Positions 28,001-61,100 of a stretch of DNA of 64,000 nt are shown piece after piece (the first letter of the stretch is position 1; the number at the start of each line of letters is the position of its first letter). Location of the stretch: contig NC_092568.1 of the NCBI RefSeq assembly GCF_037975245.1, positions 40,832,631-40,896,630 on the forward strand, read 5' to 3'. The notes beneath the pieces are model-generated. The model was given only the letters and a program-made list of their open reading frames with translations. It ran no database searches and was not told the DNA's origin. Both the position numbers and the translations under genes were made by a program. The stretch is from Apostichopus japonicus (lineage: Eukaryota; Echinodermata; Holothuroidea; Aspidochirotida; Stichopodidae).

Positions 28001-31000
28001 ATGAAGGTTCCATGATATTTAGAGTTCCTTTATAGAGATAAAGTCACAATCCATTTGTATTCTATTGACCTCCATTTTTACAGTGTCTGGCTTCAGGATG
28101 CAGAGGTCGCTCTTTCTCCCCGAAACAAAGTTCTCATCTAACGGAAACAGTTGATTGGCAGATCATCAAGATACAGGAGATTGTTGTGGATGACCAAAGG
28201 GAAGCTGGTCGCATTCCAAGAACAGTTGAATGTGAAATAACTAATGACTTAGGTATGTAAATCTGATACAAACATCATTCAAGAAAAGTTACATGTGAGA
28301 TAACTAATGACTTAGGTATGTAAATCTGGTACAAAACATCATCCAAGAACAGTTGAATGTGAGATAACTAATGACTTAGGTATGTAAATCTGATACAAAA
28401 CATCATCCAAGAACAGTTAAATGTGAGATAACTAATGACTTAGGTATGTAAATCTGATACCAAACATCATCCAAGAACAGTTGAATGTGAGATAACTAAT
28501 GACTTAGGTATGTAAATCTGATACCAAACATCATCCAAGAACAGTTGAATGTGAGATAACTAATGACTTAGGTATGTAAATCTGATACCAAACATCATCC
28601 AAGAACAGTTGAATGTGAGATAACTAATGACTTAGGTATGTAAATCTGATACCAAGCATCATCCAAGAACAGTTGAATGTGAGATAACTAATGACTTAGG
28701 TATGTAAATCTGATACCAAACATCATCCAAGAACAGTTGAATGTGAGATAACTAATGACTTAGGTATGTAAATCTGATACCAAACATCATCCAAGAACAG
28801 TTGAATGTGAGATAACTAATGACTTAGGTATGTAAATCTGATACAAAACATCATCCAAGAACAGTTGAATGTGAGATAACTAATGACTTAGGTATGTAAA
28901 TCTGATACAAAACATCATCCATGAACAGTTGAATGTGAGATAACTAATGACCTAGGTATGTAAATCTGATACAAAACATCATCCAAGAACAGTTGAATGT
29001 GAGATAACTAATGACTTAGGTATGTAAATCTGATACAAAACATCATCCATGAACAGTTGAATGTGAGATAACTAATGACCTAGGTATGTAAATCTGATAC
29101 AAAACATCATCCAAGAACAGTTGAATGTGAGATAACTAATGACTTAGGTATGTAAATCTGATACAAAACATCATCCATGAACAGTTGAATGTGAGATAAC
29201 TAATGACCTAGGTATGTAAATCTGATACAAAACATCATCCAAGAACAGTTGAATGTGAGATAACTAATGACTTAGGTATGTAAATCTGATACAAAACATC
29301 ATCCAAGAACACTTGAATGTGAGATAACTAATGACTTAGGTATGTAAATCTGTATCAAGTGATCAAGTTTAAAATATATTTAGACACACCTTGACATTTG
29401 CCTCAAGAAGACATATTGGAATGTTGCTAGCTCATCTTAAATTTTCTCACTTGTATATATATGTTTGCTTCAGTCAGTCTCACCAGACAATTCTGCTTTA
29501 GCAACAGCTCTGAATATATGGTGAATACAATGAATTAACTTTCCAAGTTTAAATCAATCCTGTTCTAAGTCAGCATCAAAATTAATGTTTTCTCTGTTTT
29601 GAACCTCTACACTAACTTTTAACAGTTGTTGGAGAATGTATCTTAGAGTTAATCCACACACACACTCATACACAATGTGGTGTGATAAAGAGCTTATGTC
29701 AGTGAGCACTTTTAAGAAAAGGATAGTCTGGGGAGAGTCTAAATTATTTACAAGAAAAACATGTAAGTAATCTGAAAGTTCCTAGATTTGTTAAGTAAAT
29801 TGCTTGAAAATAGTCCAGTGTGTATAGCTATTATCCCTTCTGTTTACCCGATCTCTCATAGCAATTATAATTATACTTAGCATGGCCCTGGAATGTATTT
29901 ATGCCATGTTTACTTGTCTCCCCTATTTCAACTGCTTTTTTAATTAACTGTGCTTTTCTTTTCATTTGTTTACCTATCAGTTGATAGCTGTGTACCAGGA
30001 GACACTGTGACTGTTAGTGGAATCGTTAAAGTGTCAAACATAGATGAAGGTAAATTAAAAACTTGATTGTATTTTAAAATTAGTGAGAAAAACCAATTGT
30101 CTCTTATTTGTCATACATTTCTTTCAAGTAATTTTCATCTTTAACAGCACATCTGTGTTTTTTATTGTTGTTGTTGTAATTCTCTGTTTACTTGTCAACA
30201 AGAGAAGGCTCCAGCGGCGGAGCTAGGGGTATTGGTCAGGGGGGTCGAGAATGGTCTGTAGGGGCGCTTTCAACACTATCTAGGCGGAGCGCCACCACAG
30301 GTTGGCGCGGAGCATGCAGGAATTTTTTGAGTAAAGGCTCCCTAGATTGCCGGAAATTACCCTTTCCAGGCTTTGCTAATTAGCAGATAAACAAAGAAGA
30401 AAAACATCACCAACAAAATGTGACAAATGTCAATAGGTAGATGAGAGCGCAATAGAAAAGTCAATAATCGCAAATAATTAAAAAGTGGTAAAAAGCTGAA
30501 AAGGGCATCAGCAGTCCAGCGTCAGCCCCCCCCCCCCCTGACTGTATGGATGCTCCGCCACTGAAAGGCTCAATACAAGCTGTTGTTTCTTATACAATCA
30601 TCACGGTAGGGATTAAGTTTCCTTCTCGATTCCTGTTGGCTTCCACTAATCTGATCCAATTTGTGAGTAGCCTGTAATCCTACAAAGATCATTTGCATCA
30701 TAAACATCCATTGTGACTGTTGAGAGCAGACATGGATTTACAATATTTACTCTATGAGTATTTAATCCATAAATCAGTGTTAGAAATATGCCCTTTAAGC
30801 TCCATTTGTGTATTTGTTTTTTTTTTAAATCTTCATATCTCTTTCCCTCAGGTCGTGGAAGAAACAAAGACAAGTGTATGTTTCTTTTGTACATTTTTGC
30901 TAATTCTATCTGTAACTTAAAGAGAGGCAAGAAAGTGACTGAGTCTGACTCTAATAGTGGCATCACTATGGACTTTAACATCAAGGAGCTCTATGCTGTG

Positions 31001-31044
31001 CAGGAAATTCAAAGCCAGCCTAATTTATTCAAATTAATTGTCAG
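22017..31044 (+). CDS. MCM8: MCM8 exons 1-11: RG-rich N-terminus, MCM N-terminal OB fold and zinc finger
   Basis: Residues 1-45 are Gly/Arg-rich with several RGG motifs, like the vertebrate MCM8 start but more repetitive. [11 protein letters not shown] (exon 2) opens the conserved N-terminal domain. [45 protein letters not shown] and [14 protein letters not shown] follow across exons 3-6. The C4 zinc finger is split across exons 7-9: C245 and C248 (FECNLCG) and C267 and C272 (CLASGC). Exon 9 continues with [17 protein letters not shown] and exon 10 with [16 protein letters not shown]. Exon 11 is unusual (see findings). Exon 9's last 37 nt and its donor seed a large tandem array. Confidence 0.93.
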
Positions 31045-58100: not shown

Positions 58101-61100
58101 ATTAATCTGGGAATGACTTGAACCGGGTTCCTTATGATTGAAAGGCACTGGCGTTAATCACTGAGCTATTTAAAATGCTGAAAAGCTGATTATTTTAATC
58201 TCCAGGTTCCCTGTACCTGTGCATTCTGGATTCAGCTCTCTGCGAGGAATATAACAAGAAAAAAGAAGCCAAGCAGAAGGAGAAGATGACAACTGAAACC
58301 AAAGAAGATGATATCAAAACAGAGGCAGGAGGAAGGTGAAGAGAAAAAAACTGATTGTCAAAATAAATTATGAAAGAAATATATAATAAATAAACTGCCT
58401 CTAAGAAACCAACTGGGAACAGTGCATGGTTGCAATTTAATATCATCTTTTGGCTTTAGACAAAGATGCTCATATGTGAATTGTTTTTTTGTTTTTTTTA
58501 ACTAATAATTTCCCCTATTTATTAGATATTAAACATTTCTTATCATCATGTGTTTTTCTGTGCTCACATATTTTTGTTATATCCCTTTAATAGTCAGTGT
58601 CTATCTACTTTATATTACACAGATCGGCCAGTCCTGACTCACCAATCATTATGCAAAGACACTGTGAGTAAATTACTAGAGTGAGAAGTACATATCACTC
58701 ACTACAGAAAATCTAGCATTGCATCCATTCATGTAGCCTTTGTATAGTTATGTAATGCTATGCACTATGTCTTGTCAGAACCTACAAGGATGCAATCAGC
58801 TGGTAATAAGGCATGTCAAAACCTATGCCCAGAATTGTATGTGTACTCTAGACTAAAGCTGAGGTAATCTGCTAGGAATCAAAATGTTGAAATTCATAAA
58901 TTAAGTCTTGCTATTTGTTTTGAGTACTACTCAAATGCCTGGCTTTCTGAAGGTATTTTATAAATAATTTGACAATAATGCTAGAAGCTAATCACATACT
59001 TTGTTCTCTAAAGTTTGTGTGAAATCTGATATTGCAACAACCAGCTTCTGTCAAAATGCTCTTTATTGCCTTGAACTTTGCTTCTGTAGTGTTTATGGGA
59101 TATACTTATAATCTTAATGAAGATATTTATCTTTACCATGCCTACATCATTCAAACATGAGTAGTCTACTTTTTTTTGTCCCAGATTCAGATTGAGAAAT
59201 ATGAGAGATGGATATTTTTTCAGTTTTTGTCTTTTAGATGATAGTATTTTTGTTATAAAGACTACAGTGTCCTATTGTGTTGTAGCTGTAACAGTTTAAA
59301 ATGATTTAATTTTGGTACTTTATTACAGATTCCACCTGGCTGTTGTTAGTAGAATGTTGTCATCTTGTCTGTGAGAAACTTGTTTCTGATTGGAGGATGG
59401 AATACTTTGTATCTCTTACTGCTCTAGAACTCTTGTCTGGGTTGGCTAGAGTCAAAATCCATGTAGAAGGTAAGTCTATTATAGCACTCAGCCAACTGGC
59501 ATATGTTGTAGAGAAACTTGAATGGAGGATGGAATACTCTGTATCTCTAACTACTCTATAACTCCTGTCTGGTTTGGCTAGAGTCAAAACCTATGTGGAG
59601 AGCAAGTCTGGTGAAAACTTTCAGTCATTATCTGGTCTATGAGAAGCTCACCTCTGATTGGTGAAAGGAATACTTGTTTCATTATTGTTGAATTATTCTA
59701 ATATTCTTGTCTGTATTGGCTAGAGTGCTAAGTCTTTTTAGAGAGCTCCATGATAGCTCTCAGATGACTGTAGCATTAAACCCAACATAGTATCTCGGTT
59801 AACTATGTTTCATGGGTAACTTCACCTGTACTTGAAGGTAAAATATCGTATCACCACTTTACTGATGAGAAACAAACTCCTGAGAGGTAAATATTTTATC
59901 ATCACTTTACTGATGAGAAACAAACTCCTGAGAGGTAAATATTTTATCACCACTTTAATGATGAGAAACAAACTCCTGAAAAGTAAATATCTTATCACCA
60001 CTTGAATGATGAGAAACAAACTCCTCAAATCCTCTCCTTTCATCTTTGTCTTCTAGATCCTCTGGAGTTGAAGAAGATAGTTAAGTCGATATCTTACCTG
60101 ATAGAGCATCAGTGTAGCTGGCCATCCATGTACCACTCCAGGGATCTACACTCTGTTATTGTAACAGCCTATCATTGCCTAACTGTCTGGCTCTTAGAAC
60201 ACAGTGATTTACTTATGGACAGGGTCAGTTCAATAATGTAGCTACAGTTTAAAACAGATTGTAAAGTGTATATTTTATGTTATGTTAATTTGTTATGTTA
60301 TTTTGTTATGTTATGCCTTAAAACATAGTCAGGTTTTGGATATGCAAGTATTTCAAATGTCAGTTTGACCATTTGTAAAATACATGACAGTACCAGAAGT
60401 TATGAGTAGGTATGCCATGTGACCATGATCTCAGTATGACAACTAAACAATTTATCAGTAAGGTAATGAAGATGAGCAGTTTTTAAATAGCTATACTAGA
60501 GGTACTTGTGAGATGTAGATAAGCCCTATATCTGACAGTTATACTAGACATTGGATAACAGTATTTGATTTATCTCTTGATTTCCATTGATCCATGACAT
60601 TTAAATACCATTGTCCAAGGGCAAGGGTTACTTGTTTAGGAGTGCCAACACAAAGGTGGTTTATTGACTGGTTAAGTGAGTGTGTGGTTACATTATTCTT
60701 TCCCTTCTGTGCAGGAATGTCTCTGTGTTGTGTGGTTACGTTATTCTTTCCTTTCTGTGCAGGAATGTCTCCACTTTGTTGTGTGGTTATGTTATTTATT
60801 TCTTTTCCATTCAGGAATGTCTCCACTGTGTGTTGGAGGTAGTTGAGCTGGGTATATCTGGTAGTAAATCTCAAGTACCTACCTCAGCCACTCCAGAGAT
60901 GAAGCACACCAAGCAATCTAAACCAGCCTCAATGAGAGTAAGAGAAGCTGCAGAAGGTGTGCTGTCTAATGTATTGAACCATGTGGTGAGTTCAGCAAGG
61001 TGCCCTCCCCCAACCCCCCTCACCCACCCTCAACACCAGATGGTGTGAAGAGACCAAATTGGGCCAAAAATGATCTGTAGATTGGTAGAAGAACTTGGAG

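What the first reader, a model, noticed from the sequence alone, without database searches (positions are those of the whole stretch)
28084..60985. Five minisatellites in two genes each start from an exon edge and multiply a splice site
In MCM8 (exons 9 and 20) and RALGAPB (exons 8, 14 and 16) the tandem unit includes the end or start of a coding exon with its donor or acceptor. The copy counts are 18 donors, 12 acceptors, 10 donors, 2-3 decayed donors and 3 acceptors. Other minisatellites in the window lie inside introns and exclude splice sites, so the genome has a general tendency to tandem duplication. Five exon-edge cases in about 40 kb still looks more than incidental. Tandem duplication of AG|GT-containing exon sequence is a proposed route of intron gain and growth. 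Here it may be a lineage-wide process that lengthens introns without breaking the gene, because at least one intact splice site always remains at the true boundary.
Basis: partly seen in the sequence, partly recalled or inferred. Interest (0 to 1): 0.8.

Follow-up and report, generated by a model that had tools for sequence, protein, structure and literature searches.

The report
Repeat arrays that copy splice sites
In this genome, very probably the Japanese sea cucumber's, short tandem repeats often grow out of an exon's edge and pile up spare splice sites in the intron; this was already known in lancelets as "mirages", and here it looks like tolerated repeat growth rather than a dedicated mechanism.

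Summary
All five exon edges carry tandem copies: 18 donors and 12 acceptors (MCM8); 10 donors, one live plus one dead donor, and 3 acceptors (RALGAPB). The genome closely matches an Apostichopus japonicus HiFi assembly. Outside the window, 11 of 427 predicted exon edges, then 3 of 85 in a replicate planned beforehand, lie inside arrays. Exon-end sequence recurs in the adjacent intron at 12 of 427 edges, against none in three control sets. The feature is thus general, and the window is not exceptional. Excess over chance is about twofold at most and depends on the null: P=0.003 with a 350-bp intron baseline, 0.15 with 100 bp. Wherever copies could be ordered, the homology-supported site is the exon-side one; 76 of 78 intact spare sites would shift the frame or add a stop if used. 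The structure matches the amphioxus "mirage". I read it as near-neutral minisatellite growth across exon edges that lengthens introns. Intron gain was not shown. Which copies are spliced could not be tested.

The parts
28084..28252 (+). MCM8 coding exon ('exon 9') whose 3' end founds the donor array; donor at 28252/28253
   Evidence: Human MCM8 alignment continues ...NDL|VDSC... into the next exon at 29981. The automatic predictor put the acceptor at 28096; 28084 follows from the human alignment.
28215..29352 (+). 64-bp x 17.8 array: 38 bp of exon end plus 26 bp of intron, 18 intact donors
38094..38873 (+). 63-bp x 12.1 array: intron end, 3' splice site and 25 bp of exon start, 12 intact acceptors
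38849..38933 (+). MCM8 coding exon ('exon 20'); the last acceptor, at 38848/38849, gives [13 protein letters not shown] as in human
54292..54459 (+). RALGAPB coding exon ('exon 8'); donor at 54459/54460 is the first of ten
54394..55621 (+). 119-bp x 10.1 array with 10 intact donors
59387..59675 (+). Old duplication at the RALGAPB 'exon 14' donor (59469/59470): a second copy 59519-59609 at 86% with a dead donor, and a 46-nt partial copy 59630-59675
   Evidence: not detected by TRF
60681..60823 (+). 48-bp x 2.9 array with three intact acceptors
60815..60985 (+). RALGAPB coding exon ('exon 16'); the last acceptor, at 60814/60815, is the homology-supported one

Best explanation
These are 'mirages': minisatellites whose founding unit happened to span an exon edge. 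A tandem duplication across the edge gives X|Y X|Y at a donor or Y|X Y|X at an acceptor (X exon, Y intron). The outer copy still forms the complete exon, so the gene can survive. More copies then accumulate by unequal exchange or slippage, adding length on the intron side. The result is a longer intron filled with spare, mostly intact splice sites. Shown: the anatomy, the frequency in a sample of exons, the position of the homology-supported copy, and that most spare sites would damage the product if used. Inferred: the duplication mechanism, near-neutrality, and that splicing uses the exon-side copy.
For: Five window cases. 11 of 427 predicted edges in an independent sample and 3 of 85 in a replicate with rules fixed beforehand. 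Exon ends recur in the adjacent intron at 12 of 427 edges against 0 of 2562 pairings with other loci, 0 of 427 inverted and 0 of 427 reversed targets. In the 16 cases with at least two copies found, the homology-supported copy is the first donor (11) or the last acceptor (5). Use of 76 of 78 intact spare sites in 15 arrays would shift the frame or add a stop (L030 frame corrected). Exon- and intron-derived columns of the extra copies vary alike, 26 of 304 and 35 of 296 in 8 arrays, P=0.22. Minisatellites (period >=20, score >=100) cover 5.0% of the sampled exon surroundings and 9.9% of the window. Both young two-copy cases (L104, L068) and decayed ones (RALGAPB 'exon 14') exist.
Against: Edge arrays exceed random placement about twofold with intron baselines of 200-350 bp (14 against 8.3-6.6, P 0.02-0.003), which pure neutrality with uniform duplication does not predict; with the first 100 bp as baseline the excess is not significant (14 against 10.9, P=0.15). 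No RNA data were available, so use of the exon-side copy is inferred. In MCM8 'exon 20' seven spare acceptors score higher than the one inferred to be used, and L028 and L098 have one stronger spare donor each.
Confidence: 0.72

Rival explanations
1. Exon edges are a hotspot for tandem duplication, or duplicated splice sites are kept as back-ups, so that these arrays form or persist more than intronic ones.
For: 14 edge arrays against 6.6-8.3 expected with 200-350 bp baselines (P 0.003-0.02); 11 against 5.1 among 42 arrays in the first sample (P=0.008); donors outnumber acceptors 14 to 5 (P=0.06). L099 1714-2192, recognised later as a further edge array, is not in these counts.
Against: No significant excess over the first 100 bp of intron (P=0.15) nor in the replicate alone (3 against 1.2-2.7, P 0.11-0.53). 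By coverage, edges are duplicated less than intron 60-120 (13 against 24 of 427). The spare copies show no extra conservation.
Confidence: 0.2
2. The spare sites are used for regulated alternative or unproductive splicing.
For: Most copies found are intact and of similar strength to the functional site.
Against: 76 of 78 intact spare sites would shift the frame or bring in a stop, and copies vary like the rest of the array. In amphioxus Adh3 and globins, mirages were reported not to disturb regular splicing (passages of PMC3087553). Unproductive splicing as regulation cannot be excluded without RNA.
Confidence: 0.05
3. Intron gain by tandem duplication of AG|GT-containing exon sequence is in progress.
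For: Donor units carry AG|GT (e.g. MCM8 ACTTAG|GT); duplication across an intron-exon boundary created an intron in potato (PMC4974935, abstract).
Against: Each array studied lies at the edge of an exon recognised by homology; I saw no new exon, but did not search for one systematically, and intron age could not be tested because no related genome was at hand.
Confidence: 0.03
4. The arrays are assembly artefacts.
For: Tandem arrays are error-prone in assemblies; reads were not available.
Against: Copies differ from one another by substitutions and length variants; the same pattern recurs in many unrelated genes; if the genome is the published HiFi assembly, arrays of about 0.1-1.2 kb lie well within usual HiFi read lengths (recalled).
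Confidence: 0.03

Closest known systems
Amphioxus 'mirages' (Adh3, globins BflGb6 and BflGb9, troponin C, PGBD5)
   Same: Minisatellite-like tandem repeats across an exon-intron boundary, on donor or acceptor side, many units with AG/GT signals, unit 10-160 bp, gene still spliced (passages of PMC3087553; PMC3902484).
   Different: This genome is an echinoderm, not a cephalochordate; here a frequency among sampled exon edges is measured. Polymorphism and RT-PCR were shown there and could not be tested here.
Minisatellites at exon-intron boundaries in human segmental duplications
   Same: Variable minisatellites that modify introns at exon-intron boundaries (PMC2812944, results part 1 and discussion read).
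   Different: There detected as differences between recent paralogs, often with the repeat also retained in exons; here in conserved genes such as MCM8 and kinesins.
Human IFI6 (6-16) minisatellite with multiple splice donors
   Same: A minisatellite carrying repeated donor sites at an exon edge (recalled, no call).
   Different: Several of the donors are said to be used there (recalled); use is unknown here.
[quoted passage not shown] potato RdRp)
   Same: Tandem duplication of a segment carrying splice signals (PMC4974935, abstract).
   Different: There a two-copy event made a new intron; here many copies sit at edges of exons, and gain was not shown.

Membership tests
Mirage (exon-intron boundary minisatellite) | Tandem repeat spans an exon-intron boundary and units carry the splice signal | tested here: met
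Mirage (exon-intron boundary minisatellite) | Either 5' or 3' boundary of an exon can be involved | tested here: met
   Window 3 donor and 2 acceptor edges; samples 11 and 3
Mirage (exon-intron boundary minisatellite) | Regular splicing of the mRNA is not disturbed | not testable with these tools
   No RNA data; sequence only shows that the exon-side site is intact
Mirage (exon-intron boundary minisatellite) | Copy number varies between haplotypes | not testable with these tools
   One haploid assembly only
Mirage (exon-intron boundary minisatellite) | Inner copies homogenised, boundary copies more divergent | tested here: inconclusive
   Fits MCM8 'exon 9' (inner identity 0.966 exon and 0.946 intron part, to functional copy 0.955 and 0.744), only half fits RALGAPB 'exon 8', and not MCM8 'exon 20' (some sample rows there include partial copies)
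Intron gain by tandem duplication | A new intron arises inside formerly exonic sequence | not tested
   No related genome was available; no such case was seen among the arrays examined, but none was systematically sought
   14 seen; expected 10.9 (P=0.15) to 6.6 (P=0.003) by baseline; coverage test points the other way

The most novel reading that the evidence does not exclude
Exon edges are real hotspots or refuges for tandem duplication in this lineage, about twice the intronic rate and leaning to donors (14 of 19, P=0.06). With about 20,000 genes, thousands of exon edges would then carry from two up to a dozen or more near-identical splice sites, of which nearly always only the exon-side one gives a working product: a natural series of experiments on how the spliceosome chooses among identical sites.
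Probability: 0.2. Interest if true: 0.75.

Novelty: new member of a known kind. Interest (0 to 1): 0.5.

Why it matters
Mirages were described in amphioxus one gene at a time. Finding them at about 2.7% of sampled exon edges (14 of 512, 95% interval 1.6-4.5%) in an echinoderm suggests they are a common by-product of minisatellite growth and a steady source of intron lengthening well outside cephalochordates. They also offer a direct test of splice-site choice, since tandem copies of nearly identical sites lie side by side and use of most inner ones would ruin the product. For annotation, they are likely traps for gene predictors.

Tried and rejected
Low TRF thresholds (period >=10, score >=50) weaken the excess (11 seen, 6.5 expected, P=0.05; the 16 cut-off pairs give P from 0.003 to 0.05), so I do not rest on one cut-off. 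The coverage comparison points the other way from the placement comparison: an intronic array covers many positions once grown, while an edge array counts only if its founding unit hit the edge. Both are reported.

The GFP family search, meant to test for amphioxus, found nothing and was uninformative because its control genomes gave nothing either; the mitochondrial contig was used instead. Apparent extra conservation of exon-derived parts of the spare copies vanished when only full copies and ungapped columns were counted. The earthworm metallothionein paper (passages of PMC12783039) concerns arrays inside an intron and was set aside.

Kept out of 14 of 512: L099 1714-2192, seen to be an edge array only by eye afterwards; L068, L112 and L138, which showed exon-end duplication but no TRF array over the predicted edge (L112 and L138 are weak, scores 35 and 34). 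Two of the 12 edges at score >=30 were not printed (10 of 12 were) and were not examined. The 15 of 427 used against the window is the 11 TRF edges plus L099, L068, L112 and L138. In some searches, L093 620-937 was moved by hand from the wrong edge to the acceptor edge that it covers.
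Full report
What is there. Four of the five claimed arrays appear in Tandem Repeats Finder at the stated coordinates; the fifth is an older duplication seen by direct repeat search. MCM8 ...NDL|VDSC... uses GACTTAG|GTATGT at 28252/28253, the first of 18 donors spaced 63-64 bp. MCM8 ...[13 protein letters not shown]... 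needs the last of 12 acceptors, at 38848/38849. RALGAPB has 10 donors from 54459/54460, one live and one dead donor and a partial copy after 59469, and 3 acceptors ending at 60814/60815.

Which organism. The genome searched as G000 has 671,581,487 bases in 35 contigs; the 16,099-base contig C35 carries a full-length COX1 match. Its COX1 has AAA where I recall asparagine in other animals (IGGFG-W, RM--MSFW), which fits the echinoderm and hemichordate mitochondrial code, and downstream reading frames look like nad4L and cox2, an echinoderm order (code, order and these two gene identities are recalled, not tested). A published HiFi assembly of Apostichopus japonicus has 671.6 Mb, 23 chromosomes of 18.21-46.02 Mb and 34 scaffolds (PMC10344927, passages including the abstract). 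C23 and C16 of G000 are 18.20 and 46.04 Mb. The totals are close, not identical (671,643,915 in the paper's scaffold table). I take the window to be that sea cucumber, hence not amphioxus, where the phenomenon was named.

Is it general? I took all 222 listed exon matches outside the window for three families: 26 MCM (29 listed less 3 in the window), 70 myosin head and 126 kinesin (only the best candidates were scored for the last two). They were fetched with 550-bp flanks as 147 loci, 248,837 bases without Ns. A simple weight-matrix predictor placed 427 exon edges. Eleven lie at least 3 bp inside a TRF array: donors in L028, L029, L030, L093, L098, L101, L103 and L104, acceptors in L093, L125 and L147 (sequences). 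As a TRF-free test, the last 60 bp of each exon was aligned to the adjacent 520 bp of intron: 12 of 427 reach score 30, against 0 of 2562 pairings with other loci and 0 of 427 each for inverted and reversed targets. A replicate with rules written beforehand used the first 46 of 59 listed SNF2 matches, 29 loci, 43,753 bases: 3 of 85 edges in arrays and 3 of 85 by alignment, with 0 in both controls; about 2 each had been predicted. Together 14 of 512 edges, 2.7% (95% interval 1.6-4.5%).

Is it more than chance? If each array's founding unit is placed at random outside pure coding sequence, 11 edge arrays compare with 5.1 expected among 42 arrays (P=0.008); other cut-offs give P from 0.003 to 0.05. 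A local version that counts arrays by distance from the exon gives, for both samples together, 14 against 10.9, 8.3, 7.1 and 6.6 expected for intron baselines of 100, 200, 300 and 350 bp (P=0.15, 0.02, 0.006, 0.003). The replicate alone is not significant (3 against 2.7 to 1.2, P 0.53 to 0.11). Unannotated exons among the 'intronic' arrays make the test conservative (L099 was one); arrays cut off at the ends of the fetched stretches may make it liberal. By coverage, 60-mers straddling an edge are duplicated in 13 of 427 cases and intron 60-120 in 24 of 427 at score >=50, with reversed and inverted controls of 0 and 0, and 3 and 2. The fair statement is that exon edges are not spared, and may be hit up to about twice as often as more distant intron. 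The window's five are not exceptional for this genome (5 of 76 against 15 of 427 by the wider count, P=0.21; 4 of 76 against 12 of 427, P=0.28).

How it works. Duplicating a segment X|Y across a donor gives X|Y X|Y; the first donor still ends the intact exon. Across an acceptor it gives Y|X Y|X; the last acceptor still opens it. A working exon thus remains at the exon side whatever the copy number. In 18 cases examined (5 in the window, 13 in the first sample) the homology-supported copy is the first donor in 13 and the last acceptor in 5; for RALGAPB 'exon 14' and the L093 donor no second copy passed that call's filter, so 16 are informative. The three replicate arrays also run into the intron (coordinates). 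Of 90 spare copies found, 84 keep GT or AG, the 6 losses all in L029; copies with more than 6 of 20 mismatches would not be found, so decayed ones are undercounted. Most are as strong as the functional site; 7 score higher in MCM8 'exon 20' and one each in L028 and L098, so strength alone cannot explain which is used. In 15 arrays with 78 intact spare sites, use of all but 2 (both in L101) would shift the frame or bring in a stop (L030 corrected). The gene therefore seems to need the exon-side site, which fits exon definition (inference from established splicing knowledge; no RNA was seen). Exon-derived and intron-derived parts of the extra copies vary alike (26 of 304 and 35 of 296 ungapped columns, 8 arrays, P=0.22), as expected if spare copies have no job. 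Two-copy cases such as L104 and L068 and decayed ones such as RALGAPB 'exon 14' look like the start and the end of the life cycle.

What is known. Tandem repeats across exon-intron boundaries were named mirages in amphioxus Adh3 and reported in globin, troponin C and PGBD5 genes, with regular splicing (passages of PMC3087553 and PMC3902484). Minisatellites at exon-intron boundaries that modify introns are reported in human segmental duplications (PMC2812944, results part 1 of 2 and discussion), and a duplication that made a new intron in potato (PMC4974935, abstract). No echinoderm report showed in these listings: sea cucumber with minisatellite, intron and tandem repeat (2 of 2), mirages with minisatellite and exon (3 of 3), three of minisatellite, splice donor, tandem repeat and exon-intron (15 of 104 listed), tandem duplication with splice sites, intron gain and minisatellite (1 of 1), sea urchin with minisatellite and splice (4 of 4), echinoderm with intron, tandem duplication and splice site (10 of 17 listed). 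Most listed papers were not opened, and the library holds only openly licensed papers, so this is weak evidence of absence.

Verdict. It is a known kind of structure in a phylum where I found no report of it, best explained by ordinary minisatellite growth that exon edges do not escape. The twofold excess is suggestive and deserves a whole-genome count.

Noticed in passing
window 59836-60025: 48-bp x 3.9 array whose unit carries a donor-like AG|GTAAAT; it lies between RALGAPB 'exon 14' and the next recognised exon at 60057, at no exon edge recognised by homology.
   Followed up: partly
window about 13500-17250: Between the CMTR1-like and MCM8 genes, open reading frames repeat similar peptides (such as LYASRQPMVALR and CTLRANRWWRSA) several times, suggesting copies of a dispersed repeat.
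   Followed up: no
G000 contig C29 (31,219 bp), e.g. L002: Several COX1 pieces in different order from the intact COX1 on C35, with TGA inside, perhaps extra mitochondrial-like or rearranged sequence in the assembly.
   Followed up: no
L099 1714-2192: A 92-bp array with five donors at the end of a kinesin exon beyond the domain match, missed by the automatic edge predictor and not included in 14 of 512.
   Followed up: yes
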